Shown here: one piece after another, positions 39,035 through 54,539 of the stretch
How the letters are laid out: the number at the start of each line of letters is the position of its first letter
Position numbering within the stretch: position 1 is the stretch's first letter
Origin: Acidimicrobiales bacterium
GTDB lineage: Bacteria; Actinomycetota; Acidimicrobiia; Acidimicrobiales; Poriferisodalaceae
Assembly: GCA_009843525.1 (NCBI GenBank)
Contig: VYDH01000020.1
Coordinates: forward strand, 1 to 64,000
Direction: 5' to 3'
Length of the DNA stretch: 64,000 nucleotides
Notes under the pieces: model-generated
What the model was told of the DNA's origin: nothing
The model's database searches: none
Seen by the model: the letters and a program-made list of their open reading frames with translations, nothing else
Position numbers and translations under genes: made by a program

Positions 39035-39053
39035 CGGCCGCTAGCCGCGGCCG
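39035..39053. terminator. GC-rich hairpin between convergent genes
   Basis: CGGCCGC and GCGGCCG form a 7-bp stem with a 5-nt loop, overlapping the stop codon of the minus-strand amidohydrolase. No T tract, but placement between convergent genes fits a shared terminator. Confidence 0.45.
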
Positions 39054-40789
39054 TGGCGCAGGAGCTTGCCGGGGGTAGCCCCGGTGCACTCGCCGTCCTG
39101 GAACGTCTCGACGCCGTTCACCAGGATGTGGCGGTAGCCATGCGCACGCTGCACGCGGCGCCACTCGCCGCCGGGCAGGTCGTAGACGGCCTCGCCGATC
39201 CACTCGGGATCGATGGCCAGCTCATCCATGTCGTAGACGAGCACGTCAGCCGGGGCGCCTTCTTTCAGCACACCGCGGTCCTGGAATCCGGCCGCGTGCG
39301 CTGCAAGCGCCGACATCCGGTAGTGCGCCTCTTCAACCGTCAGCCGCTGCTCGTCGCGCACGATCCACGCCAAGAAGTCCGTCGTCCAAGCACCGCCGGT
39401 GAAGAACTTGGTGTGCGCACCGCCGTCGGACACGCCCGGGATCGTGTACGGCGAGTCGGTGTACACCGCGGACATGTGGTCCACGTTGAACTCAGGACCC
39501 TCGCCCAGGAACTCCGTCTTCAGATCGGTCTCGAGCGACAGATCCAGCATCACGTCGATGTAGTGCTTGCCTTCCATCTCGGCGATCTCGCCCAGCGACT
39601 TGCCCACGTACTTCTGCAGGTCCTGACGTCGCGCCACTCCCTGCACAACCAGCTTGCGGGGAGGCCCGCCGACGGCGCCCTGCGTGTTCGCGAACAGCGT
39701 CGCCGCCTCATCGGTCTCGGCACGCAGCCGGTCCCGCAGGGCAGGGTCGGACATCTTGCGGATCTTGTCCTCGATCGAGCCCGTCGTCGCCTCGCGCCAT
39801 GCCGGGCTTGAGTCGTACAGGTTCCACTCGTCGAGCGAGAAGGCGAAGCCCGTGCGGATCGAAGCGCCCTGGCCGAAGATGCGCAGCCCGTCGTTGTGGG
39901 CCTGCTCGAGCCATTCGAGCCGTTCCTCGTGGACACGCGGGTTGCGCTGGCTCACGGGCACCACGTTGTCGATGATCGGTCGCCCGCTCACCTCGGCCAG
40001 CCGCCGCTTGAAGTCGAGATCCTCCGGATTGTTGACGTCGGGGCTCGTGGCCTGCGTGAGCTGGATGAAGCCCTCGTCGCGCTCACGCAGCACTTCGGCC
40101 AGCACGAAGATGTCGTCGTCGATCATGGTGTCGGTGACCATCGGCGAGCCGTCGAAGTCGGCTTGGGTGGAGTTGGGCCCGAGGCGCTGGATTGAAAAGC
40201 CGCACAGGCCGGCGTCCATGCCCTCGTGCAGCAGGCGCTGCATTTCCTTGCGCTCTGCGTTGTTGGCCGGACGGGTCTTGGCCGCTTCCAAACCCATCAC
40301 GTAGATCATCAGCGACGCCGTGGGCATGTACTGCAGGACGTTGACGCCTTTCGGCGTGCGGTCCAGCGAGTCGAGGTACTCGGGGATGGTCTCCCAGTCC
40401 CACTTCGGCAGCATGCCCTCCTGCATGGCTGCCAGCGGGATCGCCTCGGTGCGCACCATCGTGAGCATCGACCGCTCGCGGAAGTCGGGCTTGCAGGGAG
40501 CAAACCCGAAACCGCAGTTGCCGAGCACCACCGATGTCACCCCGTGCCAACTCGAGATGGAGCAGTACGGATCCCATCGGATCTGCGCGTCGTAGTGGGT
40601 GTGCAGGTCGATGGTGCCCGGGGCCACGATGCAGCCGCCCGCATCGATGACTTCCTTCGCTGGCTTGTCGGGACGGCCGCCGATCTGGGCAATGCGCCCG
40701 TCGGATATCCACAGGTCGCCGCGGAAGCTCGGCACGCGTGTCCCGTCGACGATCGTGCCGTCCTTGATGTGAATGTCGTATTCCTCCAC
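39041..40789 (-). CDS. N-acyl-D-amino-acid deacylase-like amidohydrolase
   Basis: A 582-residue amidohydrolase of the D-aminoacylase type. After the N-terminal beta-sandwich (about 1-55) come APGTIDLHTHYDAQIRWDP with the first metal ligands, VLGNCGFGFAPCKP with the bridging-Cys region typical of D-aminoacylases, and GVSDGGAHTKFFT for the distal Asp. The C-terminus GAPADVLVYDMDELAI returns to the sandwich. Members remove N-acyl or N-carbamoyl groups from D-amino acids or act on related amides. GTG start, with AGGGGGACATCG just before it; the same leader stands before the Rieske alpha gene at 9946. A promoter candidate is at 40822-40849. Confidence 0.85.
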   Translation of the reverse strand: MEEYDIHIKDGTIVDGTRVPSFRGDLWISDGRIAQIGGRPDKPAKEVIDAGGCIVAPGTIDLHTHYDAQIRWDPYCSISSWHGVTSVVLGNCGFGFAPCKPDFRERSMLTMVRTEAIPLAAMQEGMLPKWDWETIPEYLDSLDRTPKGVNVLQYMPTASLMIYVMGLEAAKTRPANNAERKEMQRLLHEGMDAGLCGFSIQRLGPNSTQADFDGSPMVTDTMIDDDIFVLAEVLRERDEGFIQLTQATSPDVNNPEDLDFKRRLAEVSGRPIIDNVVPVSQRNPRVHEERLEWLEQAHNDGLRIFGQGASIRTGFAFSLDEWNLYDSSPAWREATTGSIEDKIRKMSDPALRDRLRAETDEAATLFANTQGAVGGPPRKLVVQGVARRQDLQKYVGKSLGEIAEMEGKHYIDVMLDLSLETDLKTEFLGEGPEFNVDHMSAVYTDSPYTIPGVSDGGAHTKFFTGGAWTTDFLAWIVRDEQRLTVEEAHYRMSALAAHAAGFQDRGVLKEGAPADVLVYDMDELAIDPEWIGEAVYDLPGGEWRRVQRAHGYRHILVNGVETFQDGECTGATPGKLLRHGRG

Positions 40790-41660: not shown

Positions 41661-42056
41661 TCAACCCTTGATCTGGCGCATGAACATGCCGTTGTCGAAG
41701 TAGTCGCGCCAGAATGTGATCAGGCCGTCGTTGACTTCGAAGATCCCCATCACCGGCAGCTCGATCAGCCTGCCGGAGCCGGTGTGGAAGCGGTCGACGC
41801 GCTCGTTCATCACGGTGTTGCCGGTGGCCGTCTGGCGGACGACCTCGAATTCCACGGGTCCGTCGCCCTTCGTCAGGCCGCTCAGGAACTCCTTCATGGC
41901 GTCGGGGCCAGTCATGTCGCCGACCGGCACATTGTCGTAATAGACGTCGTCGGAGACGTGGGCGGCCGCCCCGTCGAGGTCCTTTGCTTCAATGCAGGCG
42001 ATGAATTTGCCGACGACCTCGGTCGGTGAATCGGCGGAAGCAGTCGAATCAGTCAT
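41661..42056 (-). CDS. Limonene-1,2-epoxide hydrolase-like NTF2-fold protein
   Basis: A 131-residue protein of the limonene-epoxide-hydrolase type. It keeps the catalytic set known for that enzyme: Tyr-x-Asn in VYYDNVP, Arg-x-Asp in NERVDRF and the second Asp in FWRDYFD, about 30 residues further on. Epoxide hydrolysis to a diol is the expected reaction; in this fold small ketosteroid-isomerase-like proteins are the alternative. ATG with GGAGG 10 nt upstream. Forms an operon with the SDR downstream and is divergent from the CoA-transferase pair. Confidence 0.75.
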   Translation of the reverse strand: MTDSTASADSPTEVVGKFIACIEAKDLDGAAAHVSDDVYYDNVPVGDMTGPDAMKEFLSGLTKGDGPVEFEVVRQTATGNTVMNERVDRFHTGSGRLIELPVMGIFEVNDGLITFWRDYFDNGMFMRQIKG

Positions 42057-42196
42057 GTCGGGGCAACCCTCCGGCTTGGCCTGGCGGCAAGCGGATCCCG
42101 CCGCCGGGGTCTTGTCCTAGCACGGGGAGAGGGCAGCCTGCCGCGCTGCGTCTAAGGTCACCGGGCTATGGGATCGGAGCACATGAGGTGTCATCG
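42057..42196. promoter_or_regulatory. Divergent promoter region
   Basis: A 140-base region between the epoxide-hydrolase-like gene and the CoA-transferase pair. TAAGGT at 42153-42158 is a candidate -10 box for the plus-strand genes. Confidence 0.35.
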
Positions 42197-43585
42197 ATGA
42201 CGGCGAGCGCTAACCGCAGACCGCTTGCAGGGATCCGGGTCTTCGAGATCAGCATTGCGGTGGCAGCCCCCTGCTGCGGCAAGGCGATGGCGCATCACGG
42301 GGCCGAGGTGTTCAAGGTGGAGGCCCACAGCTATCCCGATGTGGCGCGAGCGTTCGGCTCCGCATGGGCTCGCGATCCCGAGCTGGCGGATGTCTTCTGC
42401 GACACAGGTCCCTACGTGCCCGAGATGTCGGCCGGCAAGCGCTCGGTCGGGCTCGAGCTGAAACAGCCCCAGGCACTCGAGGCCGCGAAACGCCTGCTGG
42501 CCACGTGCGACGTGTTCTTGACGAACTTCGCGGCGCCGGGCATCGCCGAACTGGGACTCGACTACGAATCCGTCAAGCAGGTGTGCCCCGACATCATCTA
42601 TGCAGGCATGACCGGGTTCGGGGTCGACCCCGACAAGCCGTACTACCCCTTCCGGGCCTTCGGCCCGAATCAGGCACCGCTCGTGGGATGGGACGCGCTC
42701 ACTGGCTTCCCGCACGAGGAACCCGCCGGCATTCCCTCCATCGCCCCGCCGGACTACATGGGCGGGTTGCACACCATGCTGGCGATTGTCACGGCGTTGC
42801 ACGAACGGGACCGCACAGGTGAGGGCCGGTTCATCGACATCAGCCAGCTCGAGACCACCGTGTCGTTCCTGGGGCCATACCTGGTGGGCCAGGACCTCGG
42901 CGTGCCCGAGCCGTTTCGCAATGGCAACCGGGTGTCGTGGGCGGCACCTGCGGGGATCTACCCATGCGCGGGCAACGATCGCTGGATCGCCGTCGAAGTG
43001 CCCGATGACGAGGCATGGCAGGCGCTGGCGGGTTTGGCCGAATGGTCTGATGTGCCTGCGCACGACGCCGGCGGCGGTGCCGCCTTGTCGACCTACCCGC
43101 ACGGCACGCTGGCCGATCGCGTTGCCAATCACGATGCGATTGATGCCGAGCTGTCCGACTGGACCAGCCGTCGCAGCCCCCAACAAGCGGCCGCGGAGCT
43201 GCAGGAGCTGGGCGTTGCGGCCTACGAGGTGCTCAACCACACGGGCGTGCTGGCTGACCCCCAGGTGCACGACCGCCGCCCGTATTCGATCGCCCCGAGT
43301 CCACGATTGGGCCGCGACCTGTTCGTTCGCAACCCGGTGCGCTTAAGTGCGACACCCCCGTATGTCACACGCGCCGGGCCCAACATGGGAGGCGACACCG
43401 TCGATGTCCTCACCGAGATCGGCTATTCGGAGGACGATGTGGAGCAGATGGTCTCTGACGGGACGGCGTTCGTAGATGCCCGACCTGAGGTTGTGCTGGA
43501 ACGGCCTTTCGACCGCTGGTACGAATCGGTCGGGATAGCGGAGTTCTACGACGCCGAAGACAGCATCACCGGCGGCAGCCAATGA
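42197..43585 (+). CDS. CaiB/BaiF (class III) CoA transferase, catalytic partner
   Basis: A 462-residue class III CoA transferase. The N-terminus LAGIRVFEISIAVAAPCCGKAMAHHGAEVFKVE, SAGKRSVGLELKQPQAL, NFAAPGIAELGLDYESV and TGFGVD are typical. Asp186 in APPDYMGGLHTMLAIVTAL is at the position of the catalytic Asp of formyl-CoA transferase. The family moves CoA between carboxylic acids through Asp-CoA intermediates. ATG with AGGTG 8 nt upstream. Its stop overlaps the second CoA-transferase gene by 4 nt; that partner lacks the Asp, so a heterodimer with one active site is suggested. Confidence 0.85.
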   Translation: MTASANRRPLAGIRVFEISIAVAAPCCGKAMAHHGAEVFKVEAHSYPDVARAFGSAWARDPELADVFCDTGPYVPEMSAGKRSVGLELKQPQALEAAKRLLATCDVFLTNFAAPGIAELGLDYESVKQVCPDIIYAGMTGFGVDPDKPYYPFRAFGPNQAPLVGWDALTGFPHEEPAGIPSIAPPDYMGGLHTMLAIVTALHERDRTGEGRFIDISQLETTVSFLGPYLVGQDLGVPEPFRNGNRVSWAAPAGIYPCAGNDRWIAVEVPDDEAWQALAGLAEWSDVPAHDAGGGAALSTYPHGTLADRVANHDAIDAELSDWTSRRSPQQAAAELQELGVAAYEVLNHTGVLADPQVHDRRPYSIAPSPRLGRDLFVRNPVRLSATPPYVTRAGPNMGGDTVDVLTEIGYSEDDVEQMVSDGTAFVDARPEVVLERPFDRWYESVGIAEFYDAEDSITGGSQ

Positions 43586-44808
43586 GCCCCGCGCAACACG
43601 GCCACGGCCCGTGGAATGGGGTTCGGGTGCTTGACCTGACCGGGCTGTCGGGTGCGTATGGCACCCGCGTTTGGGCGGCGCTCGGCGCCGACGTGATCTG
43701 CGTGGAACCCCCTGGGGGGAATCCGATCCGCACCATGCCGCCGCTGGCGCCGGGTCACGCAGGCCCCGAGGCCAGCCTGTGGTGGGCGTACTACGCGGCG
43801 TCGAAACGCAGTGTGGTGCTCGACCCGACCGACAGCGAGGATGCCGCGTCGCTGGTGAAGCTGATCGGCACAGCTGACGTGGTGCTCGACGATGCGATGC
43901 CCGCCGCCCAAGAGGCATACCCGTGGCTGGCAGACATGGGCCAGGGCGGGCTCGGTGTCTCCGGGATCGTCGAGAGGTATCCGCACCTGACTTGGGTATC
44001 GATCACGCCGTTCGGCATGACAGGGCCGCGACGTCACTGGCGTTCGTCGAATCTTGTCGCCTGGGCATCGTGCGGCTTGGCGTCCACCGTGGGCTTCCCG
44101 CACGGCCCCCCGCTGGCACCGGCAGGAGAGATCGGTGTGCTGATGCACGGCGCCTCGCTGCATGCGGTGATCGGTTCGATGATGTCGGTGCGTGCACGCA
44201 ATCAGGCTGGGGCGGCGGGTGAGCCGGCACTCGGCCAGACCATCGACCTGTCGTTGCAGGAAGTAGGACTGTGGCTGTCGCCTGAGACCGGTGTGCCGCT
44301 GTATCTCGACGACCAGGTGCCACGGCCTCGGGCCGGCAATCGCCGTCCGGTCACCAGCCCGATGGGCATGTACCCAGCGTCGGACGGTTACGTGGCGATC
44401 ATCGCTATCCAGCCGGCGCACTGGAACGCAGTCGCGCAATGGGTGCACGAGCTGACCGGCAACGAGGGCATCCTCGACGAGATCTTCATCGACATCGTGG
44501 TGCGCCGTGAGGCGCTGGAAGCCGTGGACGCGTGGGTTGAGGAGCTCACCACCCGCTTCACCAAACAGGAACTGTTCGTGGAAGGCCAACGGCGGCGCAT
44601 CCCGATCACCCCGGTCAACACCGTGGGCGATCTGCGTCACGACCCGCATCTCGAAGCCGTGGGCTGGTGGCGACCCGAGGAGCACCCGGTGCTCGGCACC
44701 TACACCGTTCCCGGCTCGCCCTTCACTACCGACGGCGACTGGTGGGCCTGGCAGCGAGCACCGATGCTGGGCGAGCACACCGACGGCGTGCTCGCCGAGC
44801 TGACCTAG
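43582..44808 (+). CDS. CaiB/BaiF CoA transferase paralogue lacking the catalytic Asp
   Basis: A 408-residue class III CoA-transferase fold protein: NGVRVLDLTGLSGAYGTRVWAALGADVICVEPPGG, YYAASKRSVVLDPTD, SITPFGMTGPR. At the catalytic position the sequence reads GVLMHGASLHAVIG, with Val where the neighbour has Asp186. The rest of the fold, including the C-terminal PITPVNTVGDLRHDPHL, is intact, so this is not a decayed gene. It probably pairs with the upstream protein; class III transferases are interlocked dimers. Overlap ATGA with the upstream gene. The window also has a fusion that keeps the Asp in only one of two domains (52056-54539). Confidence 0.8.
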   Translation: MSPAQHGHGPWNGVRVLDLTGLSGAYGTRVWAALGADVICVEPPGGNPIRTMPPLAPGHAGPEASLWWAYYAASKRSVVLDPTDSEDAASLVKLIGTADVVLDDAMPAAQEAYPWLADMGQGGLGVSGIVERYPHLTWVSITPFGMTGPRRHWRSSNLVAWASCGLASTVGFPHGPPLAPAGEIGVLMHGASLHAVIGSMMSVRARNQAGAAGEPALGQTIDLSLQEVGLWLSPETGVPLYLDDQVPRPRAGNRRPVTSPMGMYPASDGYVAIIAIQPAHWNAVAQWVHELTGNEGILDEIFIDIVVRREALEAVDAWVEELTTRFTKQELFVEGQRRRIPITPVNTVGDLRHDPHLEAVGWWRPEEHPVLGTYTVPGSPFTTDGDWWAWQRAPMLGEHTDGVLAELT

Positions 44809-44826: not shown

Positions 44827-45732
44827 TCAGCGGGGCGGGTCGAGCAGGGGTGGACCGGTGGCTGTCACGTTGACCGGGTCGCCGACGGAGACCGCAACGC
44901 CCTCGGGGTCGATGGTGCACGCGACACCGAACATGGCATTGCCCTCCAGCATCCCCCGCATGCCTGGCGAGAAGCCTTCCGCGACCGAGCACCAGCGGTG
45001 CTTGCGCAGCACCAAGGCAGGTTCGCGGTGGCGCTCGCCGGTGTCCTGATCGATCTGCGGGACGGCGCAGCGGGGCCACACCACGCGAGCGGTGAGCTGG
45101 GCCGAGCCGATCGAGAACTCGGTCCAGGTGTCTTCCGACCAAGGTTCGTCGTTGGTCACGATGAGATTCGCCCGGAATCGTTCGATGCCGAACGGCTCTG
45201 AGGCCCGCGCCACCAGATCGTCGAGCGAGGCCGTATTGGCCACGAGCACCGGCGCGGCGTCAGCGAAACCGGTGAGGCGTCCCCGGAACAGCCGCATCGG
45301 ACGGGATGACTCAGGGGTGAACGCTGCGAGTCTGGCCGGGAAGCCGAGCACCTCGCTGAAGAACTCGGCCGCCTCGTCTCCTGCATCTGCGCACGCCACT
45401 TCATCGCCGATCAAGGCAAGGACAGTGGTGTCATTGGCGTCGGGGCGTTTCACGTCAATGGTGCCCATGCCGGGTGCGCTGATGGTCAGGCCGCCGTCGA
45501 TCGGCACGGCGGCGACGGTGGCGAGCGCCGCGTTGCGACGTTGGGTGACCGCTTCCCCGAGTGCGTCGGTGTCGTTGGGGGCCGTCACCACCTGCCATGC
45601 GCGGTCGCCTTCGAGCCCGGTTGCCGTGACCAGAGCCGAATCGAGCTCGACGCGGCGGCAGCCCTTGATGGGGTGAATGGTGATACCGGTGAGCGTGCCG
45701 GCGGCTTCGCCGCCATGTCCTTCTGCGGTCAT
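44827..45732 (-). CDS. MOSC-domain protein with N-terminal beta-barrel
   Basis: A 301-residue protein of the mARC/YcbX type. The N-terminal MOSC_N barrel shows GITIHPIKGCRRVELDSALV and GLEGDRAWQVV; the MOSC domain shows RFRANLIV, RCAVPQIDQDTGERHREP with the Cys that would hold the molybdenum cofactor, and the closing VGDPV. Such proteins bind sulfurated molybdenum cofactor and reduce N-hydroxylated compounds or deliver sulfur. The ATG has a TAGGGT box 6 nt upstream, suggesting a leaderless message. Divergent from the DddP-like gene. It adds to the molybdenum enzymes encoded here. Confidence 0.8.
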   Translation of the reverse strand: MTAEGHGGEAAGTLTGITIHPIKGCRRVELDSALVTATGLEGDRAWQVVTAPNDTDALGEAVTQRRNAALATVAAVPIDGGLTISAPGMGTIDVKRPDANDTTVLALIGDEVACADAGDEAAEFFSEVLGFPARLAAFTPESSRPMRLFRGRLTGFADAAPVLVANTASLDDLVARASEPFGIERFRANLIVTNDEPWSEDTWTEFSIGSAQLTARVVWPRCAVPQIDQDTGERHREPALVLRKHRWCSVAEGFSPGMRGMLEGNAMFGVACTIDPEGVAVSVGDPVNVTATGPPLLDPPR

Positions 45733-45744: not shown

Positions 45745-45812
45745 GGCTCGCCGCGCATCAGTGTCTCGGCCTCACAGCGGGGCTGTGCAGACCTTGGGAG
45801 GGGCGAGCGGTC

Positions 45813-47135
45813 ATGGCACTGCAGGGGTTCGATCGCCGCCACAAGCCCAAGATCGGCGTCGGCCGGGCCGAACCCCCGGAGTGGTTGCTGGACCACACCG
45901 ACCTCAACATGCACGCGCTCGGCCCGGGTGCCGAGCTGGAGGCCGAGTGGGCTGCTGCGGGGCTGCAGCTTCCCGACCGCTCGGCGCTGCGCCGGTACCG
46001 CCTGGAACGGGTCCGCGAGCAGCTGCGCGGCGCGGACTGCGATGCGGCACTGCTGTACGACCCGGTGAACATCCGCTACGCCACGGACACCACGAACATG
46101 TCGCTGTGGACCATGCACAACGCCGTCCGCTACGCGTTCGTGGCCGCCGAGGGGCCCGTCGTGGTGTTCGAATTCTCAGACGGCGAATTCCTCGACGCCC
46201 ACTCCGAGACGGTGGACGAGATCCGCCCGGGACTGTCGCACATCTACTTCAAGGCCGGGCCGCGCTCGGGCGAGATCGCCGGCCGCTGGGCAGCTGAGAT
46301 AGCTGGGCTGGTGGACGAGCACAGCGGGGGAGGGCGACGCCTCGCAGTCGATCAGCTCGAACTGCGCGGGATCCGGGCCCTGGAAGGCCGCGGCATCGAG
46401 CTGGTCAGCGCCGGCGAGCTGATGGAGCAGGCCCGTGCGATCAAGGGCCCCGACGACATCCGGGCCATGCGGTGTGCCGTGCACGCCTGCGAGGCTGCCG
46501 TCGGCGACATGGCGGCCGTCTTCGAGCCCGGAGTGAGCGAGCTGGATCTGTGGGCCGAGCTGTGGGCAGGGAGCCTGCGGCGCTACGGCGAGTGGATCGA
46601 GACCAGGCTGCTGTCGTCGGGCCCACGCACGAACCCGTGGTACCACGAGGCCAGCAGCCGCCGGGTAGGAGCAGGCGAGCTGATGGGCTTCGACACTGAC
46701 TTGGTGGGCGCATACGGCATGTGCGTGGACCTGTCGCGGACATGGCTGTGCGGCAGCGGCAGACCCAGCGGTGCCCAGCACGACGCGTGGTCGCTCGCAC
46801 TCGAACAGATCCAGCGCAACACCGAGCTGCACCGCGCCGGAGCAACACTGCGCGAGATCACCGACAAGGCGTGGTACCCCGATCCCGAGCATTACCGCGG
46901 CTACACGGTCATCTCCCACGGCGTCGGGCTGTGCGACGAATACCCGGCGATCTACCACCGCCACAAGTGGGACTCGATCGGCTACGACGGGGTTCTGGAG
47001 CCCGGCATAGTGATGTGCGTGGAGGCGTTCATCGGGCCGAGATCAGGCGGTGAGGGCGTGAAGCTGGAGGAGCAGGTGCTGATCACCGAGACCGGCAACG
47101 AGGTCCTCACCAGCCTGCCGCTCGGACTGGTCTAG
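45813..47135 (+). CDS. dddP: DddP-like DMSP lyase (M24 metallopeptidase fold)
   Basis: A 440-residue protein of the pita-bread fold. Every residue described for DMSP lyase DddP is present at nearly the same number: metal ligands Asp294, Asp296 (FDTDL), Asp306 (CVDLSR), His369 (SHGVGLCDE), Glu404 (CVEAF) and Glu419 (KLEEQ), plus Tyr364, 5 residues before the His, and Asp375, 6 after. DddP (about 446 residues) has these at 295, 297, 307, 371, 406, 421, 366 and 377. Other family segments are YATDTTNMSLW and GEWIETRLLSSGPRTNPW. The product would cleave dimethylsulfoniopropionate to DMS and acrylate. The alternative is an uncharacterised DddP relative. ATG with GGGAGGGG 10 nt upstream. Confidence 0.75.
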   Translation: MALQGFDRRHKPKIGVGRAEPPEWLLDHTDLNMHALGPGAELEAEWAAAGLQLPDRSALRRYRLERVREQLRGADCDAALLYDPVNIRYATDTTNMSLWTMHNAVRYAFVAAEGPVVVFEFSDGEFLDAHSETVDEIRPGLSHIYFKAGPRSGEIAGRWAAEIAGLVDEHSGGGRRLAVDQLELRGIRALEGRGIELVSAGELMEQARAIKGPDDIRAMRCAVHACEAAVGDMAAVFEPGVSELDLWAELWAGSLRRYGEWIETRLLSSGPRTNPWYHEASSRRVGAGELMGFDTDLVGAYGMCVDLSRTWLCGSGRPSGAQHDAWSLALEQIQRNTELHRAGATLREITDKAWYPDPEHYRGYTVISHGVGLCDEYPAIYHRHKWDSIGYDGVLEPGIVMCVEAFIGPRSGGEGVKLEEQVLITETGNEVLTSLPLGLV

Positions 47136-47174: not shown

Positions 47175-49082
47175 TCAAGCCGGATCTGCCGGCAGGTCGC
47201 GCTCGTGCTGTTCGAAGCTGACGAGCACCTGGTTGGCTTCGACTGCATCGCCTGGCCCGCAGCGGACCTCTGCAACGGTGCCCGCCCCGTGCGCGGCAAG
47301 CGAGTGCAGCATCTTCATCGCCTCCACCACCACGACCACGTCGCCCGTGGCAACGACATCACCCGTCACCACCGGCACGTCGACCACGACAGCGGGAAAT
47401 GGCGCAGCAACCGAGTCGACGTCGCCGGTGTCGCCGGTTGCGGTGGGCGCCCAGGCGTCGGAGCGGTCGGGCACCTCGAAGGTGATCGTGTGGCCGCGGA
47501 GATTGACGGCCACGCCATCACGCGTTGCACTGCTCGTGTTCGCGGCACGACCCGCCGCTATCGCCCTGGCGGACACCTCGTGGAGCTCGCCGACCTCATC
47601 GCGCAGCACGGCGACGGCGTCCGAGGTGTGCGGGGTCAGCCGGAAGTCGCTCAGCACGGTCCACGGCCCACTCGGGGCCGCTGCACGCTCGTCCAGCAAC
47701 GGGCCCAACCAGGCGGCCGCGGCGGCCGCGGCCGCCTCGGCGGCAGGCGGCGGCGCAGGCATCTCGGCGGCGCCGAGCCTATCGATCACGTTCGTGGTCA
47801 TCTCGCCATCGCGCAGTTGGGGCGCGTCGACGAGCCAGCGCAGGAATCCGGCATTCGTGGGAACCGGGCCCACGACCAGCCCGTCGAGCGCATCGCGCAG
47901 GGCGTCGAGCGCCGCAGGGCGGTCGGGGCGAGTGACGACGAGCTTGGCGATCAGCGGGTCGTAGTACGGGGAGATCTGACTGCCGGCGGCGATGGCGGCA
48001 TCCCAGCGCACTCCGGGGGGAACCTGCAGGTGGCGTACCGGGCCTGCCTGGGGAGTGAAGCCATCAGACGGGTCCTCGGCGTTGATCCGGGCTTCGATGC
48101 TGTGCCCGCTGAACGTGACGGCTGACTGGTCGAAACCCAGCGGCTCGCCGCCGGCGGCTCTCAGTTGCAGCTCCACCAGGTCGAGCCCGGTGATGGCCTC
48201 GGTGACGGGGTGCTCCACTTGCAGTCGGGTGTTCATCTCCAAGAAGAAGAACTCGCCGGTGCCGGCATCGACGATGAACTCCACGGTGCCGGCGTTGTCG
48301 TAACCGATGCGATGGGCGAGCGCCACCGCCGCGTCATGCAATCCCTCACGGGCGGCGGTATCCAGATTGGGTGCCGGCGCTTCCTCCAACAGCTTCTGGT
48401 AGCGACGCTGCGAGGAGCAGTCGCGAGTGCCGAGGTGGATGACCGTGCCGTGCCGGTCGCCGACGACCTGCACCTCCACATGACGGGGCCGCTCGATGTA
48501 GCGCTCCACCAGCACCCGGTCGTCGCCGAACGAGCGCAATGCCTCGGTGCGGGCTTCAGCCAGCGCGGCGTCGAACCCGTCAGCCGAGCGGACGATGCGG
48601 ATGCCCTTGCCGCCCCCGCCCGCTGACGCCTTGATCAGCACCGGAAAGCTCAATCGCTCGCGAACACCGTCGATGTCGACGTCGCTGAACCCGGGAATGG
48701 TCGGCACGCCCGCAGACTCCGCAATGGCACGAGCTTCGATCTTCGAGCCCATCTGGGCGATTGCGTCAGGATGCGGCCCGACCCAGGTCAGCCCGGCGTC
48801 GACGACTGCCCGGGCGAAGTCGGCGTTCTCGGACAGAAAGCCGTAACCGGGGTGAATCGCATCGGCCCCGGTCTCGTGGGCCGCCGCCACGATGGCCCCG
48901 GCGTCGAGGTACGAGCGCTCGAGCGAGGCCGGCCCAATGCAGATCGCCTCGTCGGCCTCGAGAGCAAACGGTGCATCACGATCGGGTTCGGCATAGACGG
49001 CGACCGTTCGCCAGCCCAGCCGGCGTGCCGTCGCGAACACCCGGCTCGCGATCTCGCCTCGGTTCGCGACCAGCAGCTTCAT
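47175..49082 (-). CDS. Biotin carboxylase/biotin carrier subunit of acyl-CoA carboxylase
   Basis: A 635-residue alpha subunit of the methylcrotonoyl/propionyl-CoA carboxylase type. The biotin carboxylase domain (about 1-445) has LVANRGEIASRVF, the ATP-grasp loop ASAGGGGKGIRIV, GTRDCSSQRRYQKLLEEAPAP and EMNTRLQVEHPVTE. An alanine run (PPAAEAAAAAAAAW, near 455) forms a linker. The C-terminal biotinyl domain has the biotin-attachment lysine in VVVVEAMKMLHS. It carboxylates biotin with bicarbonate and ATP. The beta subunit gene is 18 bases upstream on the same strand. Convergent with the DddP-like gene. Confidence 0.9.
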   Translation of the reverse strand: MKLLVANRGEIASRVFATARRLGWRTVAVYAEPDRDAPFALEADEAICIGPASLERSYLDAGAIVAAAHETGADAIHPGYGFLSENADFARAVVDAGLTWVGPHPDAIAQMGSKIEARAIAESAGVPTIPGFSDVDIDGVRERLSFPVLIKASAGGGGKGIRIVRSADGFDAALAEARTEALRSFGDDRVLVERYIERPRHVEVQVVGDRHGTVIHLGTRDCSSQRRYQKLLEEAPAPNLDTAAREGLHDAAVALAHRIGYDNAGTVEFIVDAGTGEFFFLEMNTRLQVEHPVTEAITGLDLVELQLRAAGGEPLGFDQSAVTFSGHSIEARINAEDPSDGFTPQAGPVRHLQVPPGVRWDAAIAAGSQISPYYDPLIAKLVVTRPDRPAALDALRDALDGLVVGPVPTNAGFLRWLVDAPQLRDGEMTTNVIDRLGAAEMPAPPPAAEAAAAAAAAWLGPLLDERAAAPSGPWTVLSDFRLTPHTSDAVAVLRDEVGELHEVSARAIAAGRAANTSSATRDGVAVNLRGHTITFEVPDRSDAWAPTATGDTGDVDSVAAPFPAVVVDVPVVTGDVVATGDVVVVVEAMKMLHSLAAHGAGTVAEVRCGPGDAVEANQVLVSFEQHERDLPADPA

Positions 49083-49100
49083 AGCGAACGTGCTTCCCGG

Positions 49101-50723
49101 CTACATTCGGTACACGATGCCGCTGCCCACTGCAGGAGCATCCTGGCGGGCCGCGAGCGCTAGGCAGAGCCCGAGTGCGTCACGCGTGTCGACCGGATCG
49201 ATCAGGCCGTCGTCCCACAGCCGTGCCGTGGCGTAATACGGATCACTCTGCTGCTCGTACTGAGCGGCCACCTCGGCACGCATGGCAGCGATCTCGGACT
49301 CGGTGGTCTCGGTGCCGCGCATGCCGGCGAGCCGGATGTCCACCAGCACTGTCTGCGCTGTCTCGGCTGACATCGTGGCGATTCGGCTGTTGGGCCAGGC
49401 AAACAGGAACCTGGGGTTGAAGCCACGCCCGCACATTCCGTAGTTGCCGGCACCGTAGGAGCCCCCGATGAGCACCGTGTAGCGGGGCACTGTCGCGTTG
49501 GCGACGGCGGACACCATCTTTGCCCCGTGCTTGGCGATGCCGGCTGCCTCGGAGTCGCTGCCCACCATGTACCCGGTGGTGTTCTGCAGGAACAGCAGCG
49601 GCACCCGCCGCTGCTCGCACAGCTCGATGAAGTGGGTGGCCTTGAGGGCGTCGGAGGAGAAGATGATCCCGTTGTTGGCGATGATGCCGACTTGATGGCC
49701 CCAGACCCGAGCAAAGCCGCAGGTGATGTGCTCGCCCCACTCGGGCTTGAACTCCGAGTAGCGGGAGCCGTCGACCAGACGGGCGATGACCTCTCGTGCG
49801 TCGAAGCCGATGCGGTCGTCAGCGGAGATCACGCCGTAGATCTCGGCTGGGTCGTAGTGGGGTGCTTCCGGTTCCACCCACGACAGCCAGCCCTCGCGGT
49901 GATCCACCGGACGCTGGTTGACGGCGGCGCAGAGCTCGCGCAGCTTGCCGTAGGCCGATCGCTCGTCGGGGGTCATGTAGTCGGACACGCCCGAGATGCG
50001 GGTGTGCAGCGCAGCGCCGCCGAGGTCGTCGGGCTCGATGATTTCTCCGAGGGCGGCCTTCACGATCGGCGGGCCGCCAAGGTAAATGCGGCCGATGCCC
50101 GACACCATGATCACCTCGTCGCTGAGGGCCGGAACGTACGCCCCGCCTGCCGTGCATCCGCCCAGCACCACCGAGATCTGGGGGAGGCCCATGGCTGAGA
50201 GCCGGGCCTGGCGGTAGAAGCTGCCGCCGAAGTGGTCCTTGTCGGGGAAGATGTCGTCCTGCAGGGGCAGGAACGCGCCGCCGGAGTCGACCAGGTAGAT
50301 GACGCCGAGGCCGTTCTCGGCGGCGATGTCCTGGGCACGCACGTGCTTCTTGATGCTGACCGGCAGCAGCGAGCCGCCCTTCACCGTGGCGTCGTTGGCG
50401 ATGAACATCCACGGCACGCCGCAGACCACGCCGACACCGGTGACGATGCCCGCGCCGGGGGCGCTGTTGTCGTACATCTCCCAGCCCGCCAGCGTGGAGA
50501 GCTCCAGAAACGGCGTGCCGGCATCGCAGACCAGGTCGATCCGGTCCCGCGGCAGGATCTTGCCCCGGCTGTGATGGCGCTCGATGGAGCGCTCCCTGCC
50601 GGCCCCGCCGGAGATGGCGAACTGCTGCCGCTCCCGCAGCGTCGCGAGCAGGTCGGCATAGGCAGCCGCGTTCTTCTCGAACTCGGTGCTGCCGGTGTCG
50701 ATGCGGCTTTCGAACTGTCTCAT
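49101..50723 (-). CDS. Acyl-CoA carboxylase beta subunit (methylcrotonoyl-CoA carboxylase-like)
   Basis: A 540-residue carboxyltransferase. The segments SRGKILPRDRIDLVCDAGTPFLELS, NDATVKGGSLLPVSIKKHVRAQDIA, DSGGAFLPLQDDIFPDKDHFG, GGCTAGGAYVPALSDE, IYLGGPPIVKAALGE and LIGGSYGAGNYGMCGR follow the MCC-beta pattern closely. With the alpha subunit downstream it forms a complete biotin-dependent carboxylase. Methylcrotonoyl-CoA (leucine pathway) is the best guess; geranoyl-CoA or other enoyl-CoA substrates are possible. No other leucine-catabolic gene adjoins. Confidence 0.88.
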   Translation of the reverse strand: MRQFESRIDTGSTEFEKNAAAYADLLATLRERQQFAISGGAGRERSIERHHSRGKILPRDRIDLVCDAGTPFLELSTLAGWEMYDNSAPGAGIVTGVGVVCGVPWMFIANDATVKGGSLLPVSIKKHVRAQDIAAENGLGVIYLVDSGGAFLPLQDDIFPDKDHFGGSFYRQARLSAMGLPQISVVLGGCTAGGAYVPALSDEVIMVSGIGRIYLGGPPIVKAALGEIIEPDDLGGAALHTRISGVSDYMTPDERSAYGKLRELCAAVNQRPVDHREGWLSWVEPEAPHYDPAEIYGVISADDRIGFDAREVIARLVDGSRYSEFKPEWGEHITCGFARVWGHQVGIIANNGIIFSSDALKATHFIELCEQRRVPLLFLQNTTGYMVGSDSEAAGIAKHGAKMVSAVANATVPRYTVLIGGSYGAGNYGMCGRGFNPRFLFAWPNSRIATMSAETAQTVLVDIRLAGMRGTETTESEIAAMRAEVAAQYEQQSDPYYATARLWDDGLIDPVDTRDALGLCLALAARQDAPAVGSGIVYRM

Positions 50724-50798: not shown

Positions 50799-51965
50799 TC
50801 AGAAGTTGCGGTCGCCGGAGTCCTGGCCCAGCAGCACCCGGCCGGCGGTGTCCATCTGGTATCCGCCCACCATGAAGTGCCCGGCCACGGCACGCACGTC
50901 ATTGAGCAGTGCACCGAGCGGCGATGCCGTGAAGTTGGCGGTGCTGCCGGCGGCGTCGACCAGCGTCTCGACCGCGGCGATGCAGTTCTGGACGCTCCAC
51001 GAGCAGGCCAGGCGGGCGCGGGCGTGCTGCGCCGGGGTGACCTCGCCGTGGGCCGAGGCGGTCTGCCAGATCTCGTCAAGCTGATCGGCCACGAACGATC
51101 GACCGGCACCGGCCAGCGCGGTGGCACGAGCGATCGCCGCATGGGCGTCGGGCCGTGCTGCCAGCTCAGTGCGGGCGAACAGCGGCGTCTTGGCGGTGGC
51201 CAGCGTGGTGAATTCGTCGATGGCGCGGTCGGCAATGCCCGAGGCCACGCCGGTCTTGGGGAATGGGAACCGCAGCCCTGAGGGCAGCCGGTAGAAGGGA
51301 TGCTCGTTGGGCTTGGGCAGCGAGAAGTTCTCGGCCACGCCGGCCCGTTCACTGGGCACGAAACAGTCGGTCAGCACGACGTCGTGGCTGCCGGTGCCAC
51401 GCAGACCCAGCGTGTGCCAGGTGTCGTCGATGAGCGACGGCTCGGCGGGCACCAGAACATGGCAGATGTCCTTGGGCCGGGTGCCCTCGACGATGTTGGC
51501 CACCACCCACCAATCGGCCACGCTGCAGCCGCTCACGAAGGTCCAACGACCGTTGACGAGCCAGCCGCCGTCGGTCGCACGCGCTATGCCACGTGGGACG
51601 CCCGAGCCGGCGATGACCGCATCAGGATGCTCCCCGTAGAACGTGGTGACCGTCGACGGTTCGAGGTAGGCAGCGAAGATCTCGGCTTCCTCATTGCAGG
51701 TCATGGCAACCCAGCCAGCCGACGGGTGCTCGTAGGTGACCCTGCGGGTGAACTCGATGAACTCAGCGGGGTGCCGACCGAGCCCGCCCAGCTCGGCGGG
51801 CACAAGCAGCTTCATGAGGCCGTCGCGTCCGAGGTCGGCGAAGATCTCCCGATCGGGATTGCGGTCGGCGTCGCAGCTTTCCCCGCACGCACGCACTCGC
51901 TCCAGCATCTCGTCGCTCAGCTCGCTGGGAGCTCGGAATCGCTGTGGCGAGGAGTTCTCGGCCAT
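50799..51965 (-). CDS. Acyl-CoA dehydrogenase-fold flavin monooxygenase (HsaA/DszC-like)
   Basis: A 388-residue protein with the acyl-CoA dehydrogenase fold. The pattern is that of reduced-flavin-dependent hydroxylases rather than true dehydrogenases: LVPAELGGLGRHPAEFIEFTRRV, SGCSVADWWVVANI, LGLRGTGSHDVVLTDCFVP and, near the end, DVRAVAGHFMVGGYQMDTAGRVLLGQD. HsaA hydroxylates phenolic secosteroids and DszC oxidises dibenzothiophene sulfur. The ATG has no ribosome binding site but TAGCTT lies 6 nt upstream. Divergent from the CoA-transferase fusion gene. Confidence 0.8.
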   Translation of the reverse strand: MAENSSPQRFRAPSELSDEMLERVRACGESCDADRNPDREIFADLGRDGLMKLLVPAELGGLGRHPAEFIEFTRRVTYEHPSAGWVAMTCNEEAEIFAAYLEPSTVTTFYGEHPDAVIAGSGVPRGIARATDGGWLVNGRWTFVSGCSVADWWVVANIVEGTRPKDICHVLVPAEPSLIDDTWHTLGLRGTGSHDVVLTDCFVPSERAGVAENFSLPKPNEHPFYRLPSGLRFPFPKTGVASGIADRAIDEFTTLATAKTPLFARTELAARPDAHAAIARATALAGAGRSFVADQLDEIWQTASAHGEVTPAQHARARLACSWSVQNCIAAVETLVDAAGSTANFTASPLGALLNDVRAVAGHFMVGGYQMDTAGRVLLGQDSGDRNF

Positions 51966-51971
51966 CTGGGC

Positions 51972-51977
51972 AAGCTA
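51972..51977 (-). promoter_or_regulatory. Candidate -10 box for leaderless HsaA-like gene
   Basis: TAGCTT on the minus strand, 6 nt before the ATG at 51965. Confidence 0.5.
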
Positions 51978-52055
51978 ACCGCCCCGTCACAGCAAGCGCC
52001 TGCGTATCGTCGTACCGATTCGACGTGCCAGCACGTTCATGAGTTCAGGGGCCAC

Positions 52056-54539
52056 ATGACCTCACCCGACGCCGCCCAGCACACGGCATCCGCGCCGCTT
52101 GCGGGTATGACCGTTCTCGATCTCACTGATCACCGCGGCGAATTCGGGCCGTGGATGCTGGCCGAATTGGGCGCGGACGTGATCAAGGTCGAGCCGCCCG
52201 GCGGCACGTCTGCCCGCGCGGCGCTGCCGGTGCGTGAATCGAATGGCGCGACAGACGACCTGCGCAGCTGGCAATTCTGCGCATACAACTCCAACAAGCG
52301 CTCCATCGTGCTGGACCTTGACGCCCCGGAAGACAGGGACGTGTTTGAGAGCCTCGTCAAGCTCGCGGACTTCGTCTACGAGTCGGGAGTGGCGGGAACG
52401 CTGGCCGCCGCCCGATACGGCCACGATGATCTTGCAGCGCTGAACGACCGGATCATTCATGTGCAGGTCACGCCGTTCGGCCTCGACGGGCCCCGCAGCG
52501 GCGATCCCGCCTCGGAGCTGTCGCTGGCGGCGCTGGGCGGGCCGGCGAACATGCAGGGCATCTTCGAGCGAGCGCCCGTCAAGGCGTCTATCGCTCAGGC
52601 ATGGCGCCACGCGGGCGCCGAATCCGCAGCGGCAGGGTTGATGGCCCACGCTCGAATGCGCGCCACGGGTTCGTCACAGCACGTCGGCGTGTCAGCCCAG
52701 GCGGCGATGACATGGACGCTGCTGAATGCCATGGAGACCCACGCGATCTGCGGGCGGGACTTCGAGCGCTCCGGCACGGTCGCGCAACTGGCCGTGCCCC
52801 TCGAGATGCGCTACCGCACACAGGACGGCTGGGCGATCGGAGTTGCCCGGGGCGTGGCGACAGGCCGCCTGCTCGAGTGGTACATCGAGGAGGGCCTGGC
52901 AGACGAGAGCTGGCGCGTCGAGGAATGGGATACCTACGACATGCGAGCCGCAGCCGGCGAACCGATCAGCCGAAACTTCGACGAGCTGTACCAGGCGATG
53001 GTGGGGCTGTGTGGGCGACACACGAACGCTGAACTGCTGCAGCGCTCAATGGTTCTGAAGGAGACGATTGCGCCGGTCCACACGGTGGCCGACCTCGTCG
53101 AGTTCGAGCACCTGCGAGCCCGCGACTTCTGGCGACCGACCGAAGCGGCGAACACGACCCCAGTGGAGCTTCCCGGCGGTCCGGCCACGATCGACGGAGT
53201 GCGCATCGGCACGAAACGGCAGCCGCCGCGACTCAATGAGCACAGCGTCGAGATCCGGGATCAGATCGCCGAGGCTGCCGCAGATCATGAGCACTCAGCT
53301 CAGCCCTTGGAGTGGAGTGTGGGCACTGCCGAACTGCCCTTTGCCGGGTTGCGCGTCGCTGACTTCAGCTGGATCGGAGTGGGACCCATCACCGCGAAGG
53401 CCCTCGCCGATCATGGCGCGACCGTGGTTCGGATCGAGTCGAGTTCGCGTCTCGACGGGCTGCGTGCGAACCCGCCCTTCAAGGACGACGTCATCGATGT
53501 GGACATGGCCCACTTCTTCGGCACCTTCAACACGTCGAAGCTCAGCATCGACATCGATCTCAAGACGCCCGAGGGCGTCGAGATCGCCCACCGGATGATT
53601 GCGTGGGCCGACGTCGTGGTGGAGGCCTGGACGCCGGGGACCTTCGCCCGCACCATCGCCGACGATGACCTGATCGCCGAGCTGAACCCTCAAGCCATCG
53701 TGGTGCACACGTCGCTGCTTGCCAGCGGCGGACCGATGTCGGCACTCGGCGGATTCGGATATCACGCAGCCGCCATCGCGGGCTTCTACCCGGTCGTGGG
53801 CTGGCCCGACCTGCCGCCCGACGGCCCCTACCTTGCCTACACCGACACCATCTCGCCGCGCATCATCACCACCACGCTGCTTGCGGCGCTGGATCGCCGG
53901 CGCAGGACCGGTCAGGGCTGTGTCATCGAAGCAGCGCAGCTCGAGTGCGGCCTGCAATTCCTCGCTCCCGAGCTCGCCAATTACGGCGAGAGTGGCACGG
54001 TGGCCACCCGGATCGGGAATCGCGATCCCGAAATGGCGCCCCAGGGTGTGTATCGGTGTGCGGGGGAGGACCGCTGGTGTGCGATCACCATCGCGGATGA
54101 CACCCAGTGGGCGACGCTGACCAAGCTCATGGGCGCTCCGCCGTGGGCCCTCGCACCCGAGCTGTCGACCCTTGATGGGCGGCTTCAGGCCCACGATGCG
54201 ATCGACGACGAGATCGCGGCGTGGACGGCTGACCAAGACGCAGCCACGCTGGAACGGCAACTGCTCGACGCCGGGATCGCGGCAGGCATGGTGCAGCGCA
54301 GCAGCGACCTGCTGGCGGACCCGCAGTATGCGCATCTCGGCTTTCATCGCTGGCTCGAGCACCCACGGATGGGCAACGTGCCCTATTCGGGCCATCAGTA
54401 CCGGATCGCGGGTTATGACCATGGTCCACGCCATGCCGCGCCGATGATCGGCCAGCACACGTTCGACGTGCTCAGCGAGTTCTTGGGCCTCAGCGACGAT
54501 GAGATTGCCGACGCCGCTGCGGCGGGTGCATTGGGCTGA
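52056..54539 (+). CDS. Tandem CaiB/BaiF CoA-transferase fusion, DddD-like architecture
   Basis: An 827-residue protein made of two class III CoA-transferase domains. Domain 1 (about 15-400) starts LAGMTVLDLTDHRGEFGPWMLAELGADVIKVEPPGG; at its catalytic position it reads QAWRHAGAESAAAGLM, without Asp. Domain 2 (about 425-815) starts FAGLRVADFSWIGVGPITAKALADHGA and has Asp597 in AYTDTISPRIITTTLLAAL. The DMSP CoA-transferase/lyase DddD has the same size and layout, with its catalytic Asp (602) in the second domain. Tandem CaiB proteins of actinobacterial steroid and terpenoid catabolism are the alternative. The ATG follows AGGGGCC; TATCGT at 52005-52010 may be its -10 box. The DddP-like gene 5 kb upstream makes a DMSP role worth considering. 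Confidence 0.8.
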   Translation: MTSPDAAQHTASAPLAGMTVLDLTDHRGEFGPWMLAELGADVIKVEPPGGTSARAALPVRESNGATDDLRSWQFCAYNSNKRSIVLDLDAPEDRDVFESLVKLADFVYESGVAGTLAAARYGHDDLAALNDRIIHVQVTPFGLDGPRSGDPASELSLAALGGPANMQGIFERAPVKASIAQAWRHAGAESAAAGLMAHARMRATGSSQHVGVSAQAAMTWTLLNAMETHAICGRDFERSGTVAQLAVPLEMRYRTQDGWAIGVARGVATGRLLEWYIEEGLADESWRVEEWDTYDMRAAAGEPISRNFDELYQAMVGLCGRHTNAELLQRSMVLKETIAPVHTVADLVEFEHLRARDFWRPTEAANTTPVELPGGPATIDGVRIGTKRQPPRLNEHSVEIRDQIAEAAADHEHSAQPLEWSVGTAELPFAGLRVADFSWIGVGPITAKALADHGATVVRIESSSRLDGLRANPPFKDDVIDVDMAHFFGTFNTSKLSIDIDLKTPEGVEIAHRMIAWADVVVEAWTPGTFARTIADDDLIAELNPQAIVVHTSLLASGGPMSALGGFGYHAAAIAGFYPVVGWPDLPPDGPYLAYTDTISPRIITTTLLAALDRRRRTGQGCVIEAAQLECGLQFLAPELANYGESGTVATRIGNRDPEMAPQGVYRCAGEDRWCAITIADDTQWATLTKLMGAPPWALAPELSTLDGRLQAHDAIDDEIAAWTADQDAATLERQLLDAGIAAGMVQRSSDLLADPQYAHLGFHRWLEHPRMGNVPYSGHQYRIAGYDHGPRHAAPMIGQHTFDVLSEFLGLSDDEIADAAAAGALG

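What the first reader, a model, noticed from the sequence alone, without database searches (positions are those of the whole stretch)
45813..47135. DddP-like DMSP lyase with a complete active site
All six metal ligands and the catalytic Tyr and Asp of DddP are conserved with an offset of only one to two residues, and the length matches (440 against about 446). DddP is best known from marine alphaproteobacteria and some fungi; a copy in a probable actinobacterium would widen the set of organisms that can release DMS.
Basis: partly seen in the sequence, partly recalled or inferred. Interest (0 to 1): 0.7.

Follow-up and report, generated by a model that had tools for sequence, protein, structure and literature searches.

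The report
DddP sister-lineage enzyme in an actinobacterium
An uncultured actinobacterium carries an intact enzyme from a lineage next to, but outside, the known DddP enzymes that release the gas DMS; the genes beside its relatives point at least as much to breakdown of other betaines as to DMSP, so its substrate is open.

Summary
In detail: ORF 45813-47135 encodes 440 aa with all six DddP metal ligands and the catalytic Tyr and Asp. Its nearest solved proteins are two DddPs (363 and 352 bits; next a prolidase, 64). It scores 438.6 bits against NCBIfam's DddP cut-off of 600, lies outside the 31-row clade holding the DddP anchors, and joining its group to that clade is rejected (p-AU 0.009). 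The eight residues also occur in 7 of 7 rows of a clade annotated as proline or Xaa-Pro peptidases, so they do not prove DMSP cleavage. Gene neighbours differ by clade: acryloyl-CoA-reductase-family genes lie within 1.5 kb of 10 of 36 DddP-clade rows and 0 of 40 sister-clade rows; dimethylglycine-dehydrogenase-like genes beside 4 of 36 and 19 of 40. The nearest relative examined (73%) has a betaine-type transporter and a glycine-betaine-methyltransferase-like gene. One gammaproteobacterial lineage of the query's subclade (65-66%) has dmdA, mtoX and acuI instead. I favour a DddP-like enzyme for an N-methylated betaine-type osmolyte (0.47) over a DMSP lyase (0.33). Acidimicrobiial 'dddP' has been predicted in print since 2020.

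The parts
45813..47135 (+). DddP-like M24-fold enzyme gene, 440 aa
   Evidence: ORF and translation; PDB and family matches
45796..45803 (+). Shine-Dalgarno-like GGGAGGGG, 9 nt before the ATG
   Evidence: sequence
45813..45977 (+). N-terminal extension (residues 1-55), counterpart of the RdDddP 'appendix' that prolidases lack
   Evidence: alignment; appendix described in PMC4108388
46107..46109 (+). codon of W99, aligned with W95 of RlDddP in the NM.LW..HN motif
   Evidence: that a Trp and a Tyr bind the sulfur is from PMC5395565, that it is this Trp is recalled
46653..46655 (+). codon of S281, where clade A (DddP) has Gly in 31 of 31 rows and the query's group Ser in 12 of 12
46692..46700 (+). 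stretch with the codons of metal ligands D294 and D296 (FDTDL)
46728..46730 (+). codon of metal ligand D306
46902..46904 (+). codon of Y364 (RlDddP Y366)
46917..46919 (+). codon of metal ligand H369
46935..46937 (+). codon of D375 (RlDddP D377, proposed base)
   Evidence: role from PMC4108388 and PMC5395565
47022..47024 (+). codon of metal ligand E404
47067..47069 (+). codon of metal ligand E419
44827..45732 (-). divergent MOSC-domain gene, neighbour in most genus loci (not shown to be part of the pathway)
   Evidence: Pfam MOSC and MOSC_N; synteny

Best explanation
A two-metal M24-fold enzyme of the long-type DddP superclade that works like DddP but, in this lineage, most likely on an N-methylated betaine-type osmolyte and not mainly on DMSP. 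The substrate would enter by an OpuA-type ABC transporter (encoded elsewhere in the host). Its carboxylate would sit on the two metals held by D294, D296, D306, H369, E404 and E419, its onium head in the aromatic pocket (W99, Y364), and D375 would act as base so that the bond to the onium group is cleaved; partners in relatives (dimethylglycine-dehydrogenase-like, MTTB-type and Rieske-type enzymes) would strip N-methyl groups. Shown here: ORF, residues, tree position, neighbour genes of relatives, transporter counterpart in the host. Inferred: substrate, metal, mechanism, product; the exact betaine is not named by the evidence.
For: The query sits in the sister group of the DddP clade, and the two groups have different neighbours within 1.5 kb, counted on rows with at least 1 kb on both sides: dimethylglycine-dehydrogenase-like 19 of 40 sister rows (query's subclade apart) against 4 of 36 DddP-clade rows; acryloyl-CoA-reductase-family 0 of 40 against 10 of 36 (one of the former checked: best PDB hit dimethylglycine dehydrogenase, 5.7e-66). 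In the query's subclade, of 17 such rows 2 have the dimethylglycine-dehydrogenase-like gene, 2 MTTB, 1 OpuAC, 1 choline-sulfatase and 1 dmdA. L201/G436, 73% identical, has an MTTB-family gene head-to-head with it (PF06253 659 bits; best named PDB hit glycine betaine methyltransferase 9yce 1.4e-88, trimethylamine methyltransferase 6e-41) and the OpuA genes beyond it; G428 also has the MTTB. L202: MTTB, Rieske and dimethylglycine-dehydrogenase-like genes; L035: MTTB and dimethylglycine-dehydrogenase-like; L203: choline-sulfatase overlapping its start (TIGR03417 669 bits, cut-off 433). L034: OpuA genes upstream. The host holds a close counterpart of L201's OpuA (86, 69 and 85% identical).
Against: L029 and L030, in the same 11-row subclade (66% and 65%), carry dmdA (620 and 618 bits, cut-off 410) and mtoX (752 in both, cut-off 650), L030 also acuI (445, cut-off 440). 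No exact substrate is named, and glycine betaine itself has no beta carbon for elimination. 4 of 36 DddP-clade rows also have the dimethylglycine-dehydrogenase-like gene and 1 an MTTB, so these neighbours do not exclude DMSP. Rows are related, so the counts are not independent. The query's own genus shows none of these neighbours.
Confidence: 0.47

Rival explanations
1. A DMSP lyase like DddP: DMSP carboxylate on the two-metal site, D375 takes the alpha proton, beta-elimination gives DMS and acrylate, and acrylate is handled by the host's AcuI-like enzyme.
For: All residues present; nearest solved proteins are DddPs; dmdA, mtoX and acuI beside same-subclade relatives L029 and L030. The host has an AcuI-like protein (best PDB hit AcuI 5gxe 1e-120; TIGR02823 418 bits, cut-off 297; 61% identical to the linked AcuI of L030) and a DmdA-like protein (best PDB hit 3tfh 2.3e-69, next 5e-28). 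Fungal DddP at 32% identity still cleaves DMSP (PMC4108388).
Against: 438.6 bits of 600; outside the DddP clade, p-AU 0.00885. L029 and L030 are one lineage (the proteins are 96% identical); G446 has its dmdA on another contig, and no dmdA, mtoX or acuI match at 1e-10 was found in L031 or L033. Host DmdA-like and AcuI-like proteins are under the equivalog cut-offs (316 of 410, 412 of 440). At 1e-60 DmdA is absent from the nearest relatives G436 and G428, and AcuI from six of the nine non-genus subclade genomes searched, those two included. AcuI also rings in E. coli and B. subtilis.
Confidence: 0.33
2. A creatinase- or other amidinohydrolase-like enzyme of the M24 fold whose product (such as sarcosine) feeds the neighbouring FAD/folate oxidase.
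For: Dimethylglycine-dehydrogenase-like or DAO-type FAD genes beside many relatives.
Against: The creatinase chain in PDB scores 29 bits against 363 for DddP; DoeA 35.1 of 613 bits.
Confidence: 0.08
3. An Xaa-Pro type M24 peptidase.
For: M24 fold (PF00557 89.5 bits, Creatinase_N 37.5 bits); some relatives are annotated as Xaa-Pro peptidase family.
Against: Peptidase models far under their cut-offs (44.5 of 393; 36.8 of 630). D375 stands where peptidases have the His of their HE.P motif (recalled); D297 of RdDddP has no counterpart in methionine aminopeptidases (PMC4108388). RlDddP does not cleave Val-Pro (PMC5395565).
Confidence: 0.05

Closest known systems
DddP DMSP lyase (Ruegeria lacuscaerulensis 4rzy, Roseobacter denitrificans 4b28; NCBIfam NF043017)
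   Same: fold family, full length with N-terminal extension, six metal ligands, catalytic Tyr and Asp, motif Trp; 44% local identity over 91% of the query
   Different: 438.6 bits against a cut-off of 600; outside the 31-row DddP clade; Ser for Gly at position 282 and Trp for Phe at 155 (query W159); different neighbour genes in the sister clade; no activity data
Acidimicrobiial 'dddP' predictions (PMC7494906, with DddP groups III and IV including Actinobacteria; PMC13280387)
   Same: same class of host; probably overlapping protein groups (not tested)
   Different: there counted as DMSP lyase genes by similarity; the passages seen mention no enzyme test of them
Rhizobial, Paraburkholderia, Caballeronia and Pseudomonas M24 proteins (L094-L098)
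   Same: all eight residues; 45.8-48.5% identical to the query
   Different: match begins at query residue 51-60, annotated CDS of 370-415 aa where annotated; separate clade
M24 prolidase/aminopeptidase P (3q6d, 2zsg)
   Same: pita-bread fold (PMC4108388)
   Different: 64 and 44 bits against 363

Membership tests
DddP | six metal ligands (RdDddP D295, D297, D307, H371, E406, E421) | tested here: met
DddP | catalytic Tyr366 and Asp377 | tested here: met
   Y364, D375; also met by 7 of 7 rows of the L094-L098 clade, so not diagnostic
DddP | N-terminal extension before the creatinase-like domain | tested here: met
   55 residues before the position of RlDddP residue 52; structure not modelled
DddP | score over the NCBIfam equivalog cut-off (600 bits) | tested here: not met
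   438.6 bits; 0 of 395 genomes of the host's class over it, 12 of 385 of the class of G443
DddP | place inside the clade of verified enzymes | tested here: not met
   for the enzymes that could be included; fungal DddPs, O. doudoroffii DddP2 and the scallop-symbiont DddP were not available
[quoted passage not shown]
   needs an assay
DMSP catabolic gene context | linkage to dmdA, acuI or mtoX | tested here: inconclusive
   met in one gammaproteobacterial lineage of the subclade; not met in the window or in the sister clade for acuI (0 of 40)
M24 Xaa-Pro peptidase | score over a curated peptidase model | tested here: not met
   44.5 of 393 and 36.8 of 630 bits
Ectoine hydrolase DoeA | score over TIGR02993 cut-off | tested here: not met
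   35.1 of 613 bits

The most novel reading that the evidence does not exclude
DddP is one branch of a larger family of betaine-type (onium-zwitterion) enzymes that share one active site; the sister clade, common in Acidimicrobiia and passed to Gammaproteobacteria, works with dimethylglycine-dehydrogenase-like and MTTB-type demethylating partners on N-methylated substrates, and part of the 'dddP' counted in ocean surveys is therefore not DMSP lyase.
Probability: 0.38. Interest if true: 0.65.

Novelty: new variant of a known kind. Interest (0 to 1): 0.45.

Why it matters
dddP is often reported as the commonest bacterial DMSP lyase gene in seawater (PMC13360808; PMC10686828). [quoted passage not shown] One enzyme assay on this lineage would tell whether actinobacterial 'dddP' belongs in DMS budgets. 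PMC6309047 (2018) stated that no known functional ddd genes had been found in actinobacterial genomes although isolates made DMS.

Tried and rejected
Peptidase, ectoine hydrolase and creatinase readings were set low on model and PDB scores. Whether the biotin carboxylase and carboxyltransferase downstream (47175-50723) are a propionyl-CoA carboxylase for acrylate use was left open: the carboxyltransferase is nearest to AccD1 (615 bits), a propionyl-CoA carboxylase beta chain (605) and methylcrotonyl-CoA carboxylase beta chains (589) alike. That the double CaiB protein (within 51300-54539) is a DddD was not supported: only general CoA-transferase models matched, all below cut-off; I do not know whether NCBIfam holds a DddD model. 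No BCCT transporter was found in the host; 2 of the 10 other genus genomes and G436 have one. No structure model was obtained. The verified fungal DddPs and O. doudoroffii DddP2 could not be fetched. Rows dropped: three short fragments (L037, L017, L089), near-identical rows (over 82%, over 78% with named exceptions), and for the careful tree the far groups except two outgroup rows, which did not fall together. The 7 clade-A rows L181, L182, L184 and L186-L189 counted as acryloyl-CoA-reductase family are only 41-43% identical to the linked AcuI, and the one checked (L182) is nearest to YhfP-type chains (296 bits) before AcuI (248). Papers: PMC4108388 (passages and one section); PMC6309047, PMC10686828, PMC13280387, PMC13360808, PMC7494906, PMC10989825, PMC8547437, PMC5395565, PMC3338564, PMC12263773 (passages only); others only as search listings.

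Full report
What is there. The ORF at 45813-47135 (+) is an intact gene: 440 aa, ATG, GGGAGGGG nine bases upstream, under purifying selection, with a counterpart in 9 of 10 other genomes of the genus at 79-91% identity. It is divergent from a MOSC-domain gene and convergent with a biotin carboxylase gene. Of nine genus loci, L021, L022, L023, L027 and L032 keep both sides; L024 and L028 keep what their contigs cover; L025 differs downstream; L026 has no MOSC match in its 2.5 kb upstream. At 1e-15 none of these neighbours was matched beside the relatives in other genera apart from general SDR, Cys/Met and ABC-ATPase matches in L033 and L034.

Active site. Aligned with RlDddP, all six metal ligands and the Tyr/Asp pair are present with an offset of one or two residues, and so is the Trp of the NM.LW..HN motif. 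Further out the Asp is replaced by Asn (with Tyr also replaced), Gly, Val or Glu.

Family models and census. NF043017 (DddP) gives 438.6 bits against a cut-off of 600. At E 1e-40, 45 of 395 genomes of the host's class and 21 of 396 of its phylum match, none over the cut-off. At 1e-60, 78 of 385 genomes of the class of G443 (the genome of L038, titled Kiloniellales) match, 12 over the cut-off.

Tree. In the careful 85-row tree a 66-row long-type clade (100/95) splits into a 31-row clade A (100/99) with RlDddP, RdDddP and two plasmid proteins annotated DddP (L092, L093), and a 35-row sister group (89/78) that holds the query in an 11-row subclade (100/100; the 12-row group adds L027). Clade A plus the query's subclade is rejected as one clade (p-AU 0.00885); the groups had been seen in an earlier quick tree, so the p value is generous. 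The two outgroup rows did not fall together, so the root is not firm. Among the anchors only RlDddP has its activity described in passages I read; RdDddP is called putative. Fungal enzymes, one only 32% identical to RdDddP and still active, are missing, so 'outside' holds for the enzymes included. Clade A has Gly282 in 31 of 31 rows, the query's group Ser in 12 of 12.

Neighbours by clade. Matches of at least 150 bits within 1.5 kb, on rows with at least 1 kb on both sides: clade A (36 of 39 rows usable) acryloyl-CoA-reductase family 10, dimethylglycine-dehydrogenase-like 4, MTTB 1, Rieske 1; sister group without the query's subclade (40 of 44 usable) dimethylglycine-dehydrogenase-like 19, MTTB 1, acryloyl-CoA-reductase family 0; query's subclade (17 of 20 usable, same-genus duplicates included) dimethylglycine-dehydrogenase-like 2, MTTB 2, OpuAC 1, dmdA 1, choline-sulfatase 1. 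Fisher p for A against sister: 0.0003 (acryloyl-CoA reductase) and 0.0009 (dimethylglycine dehydrogenase), but rows are related, so these are not true probabilities. Of the ten clade-A reductases three (L112, L113, L115) are 54-64% identical to the linked AcuI of L030 and seven 41-43%; one of the latter is nearest to YhfP-type chains. Linkage of acuI and dddP in Ca. Puniceispirillum is in print (PMC3338564).

Neighbours in the query's subclade in detail. L029: dmdA and mtoX downstream; L030: after a reverse gntR, a PpoB2-type and a DUF1326 gene, dmdA, acuI and mtoX, each over its curated cut-off; the two are one lineage (96% identical proteins). G446 (L031) has a dmdA over the cut-off on another contig; L031 and L033 have no dmdA, mtoX or acuI match in the stretches held (21.3 and 10.8 kb). 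L201/G436 (73%): MTTB head-to-head, OpuAC 1.7 kb upstream with permease and ATPase beyond, and downstream a tandem paralogue with Asn for both catalytic residues. G428 has the same MTTB; its wider neighbourhood was not fetched. L034 (63%): OpuA ATPase, permease and binding protein directly upstream, a DAO-type gene downstream. L202: MTTB, Rieske (GbcA model 166 of 670 bits) and dimethylglycine-dehydrogenase-like upstream, an OpuAC downstream. L035: MTTB and dimethylglycine-dehydrogenase-like. L203: choline-sulfatase overlapping the called start by 4 bp. L031, L033 and L036 showed nothing telling among the neighbours scanned.

Host genome. A close counterpart of L201's OpuA lies elsewhere in the host (L212: 86, 69 and 85%), with a second OpuAC in L211 (79%); choline-sulfatase and choline dehydrogenase lie together with a further OpuA-like set (L213). 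AcuI-like at 1e-60: 9 of 11 genomes of the genus, host included; DmdA-like: 7 of 11; all under the equivalog cut-offs. Outside the genus, AcuI-like is found in 3 of 9 and DmdA-like in 7 of 9 subclade genomes searched (one of the seven a partial match, G447); G436 and G428 have neither.

Reading. All contexts concern uptake or breakdown of small onium zwitterions. Clade A goes with acrylate handling in part, the sister group with N-demethylation; the query's nearest relatives have MTTB and OpuA. That makes an N-methylated betaine-type substrate the better guess (0.47), with DMSP (0.33) kept alive by the residues and by the dmdA/mtoX/acuI lineage; creatinase-type 0.08, peptidase 0.05. The mechanism (carboxylate on the metals, Asp as base) is carried over from the DddP literature and not tested.

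What was known. PMC6309047 (2018) reported no known functional ddd genes in actinobacterial genomes; PMC7494906 (2020) listed dddP in Acidimicrobiia MAGs and four DddP groups, two including Actinobacteria; PMC13280387 (2026) again lists Acidimicrobiia dddP. I saw no enzyme test of an actinobacterial DddP in the passages read; the searches were made, in a library that lacks most subscription journals. So such a gene's presence is not new; its place outside DddP proper, the clade-wise neighbour contrast and the failure of a 40% identity rule to separate the groups are the useful additions.

Noticed in passing
L201:8000-9160 (-) and L201:9238-10533 (-): Tandem pair in a near relative: an intact query-type gene and a paralogue in which both catalytic residues are Asn (Y366N, D377N by RlDddP numbering); the same double change stands in L134, and L040 has Ile and Asn.
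   Followed up: partly
L074, L075, L050, L123, L085, L202, L035: MTTB-family methyltransferase genes next to or near DddP-like genes in several clades, among them one protein over the DddP cut-off (L085, 638 bits).
   Followed up: partly
window 55664-58048 (+): Molybdopterin S/N-oxide reductase-like gene (TIGR00509 845.7 bits, cut-off 1017.55), kept near the dddP-like gene in the genus loci that reach that far.
   Followed up: partly
window 51300-54539 (+), second half: Two CaiB/BaiF CoA-transferase domains in one open frame, plus two single CaiB genes at 42026-44808.
   Followed up: partly
window 39041-40789 (-): Amidohydrolase of 582 aa kept at 91-99% identity in the five genus loci that cover it.
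   Followed up: no
L029, L030, L031, L033: Proteins of MAGs titled Gammaproteobacteria nested among Acidimicrobiia rows in the tree, which suggests transfer between phyla or mis-binned contigs.
   Followed up: partly
L021:6895-9016, L024:7797-9017, L025:6319-9017: About 1.2 to 2.7 kb more DNA between the second CaiB gene and the MOSC gene than in the window.
   Followed up: no
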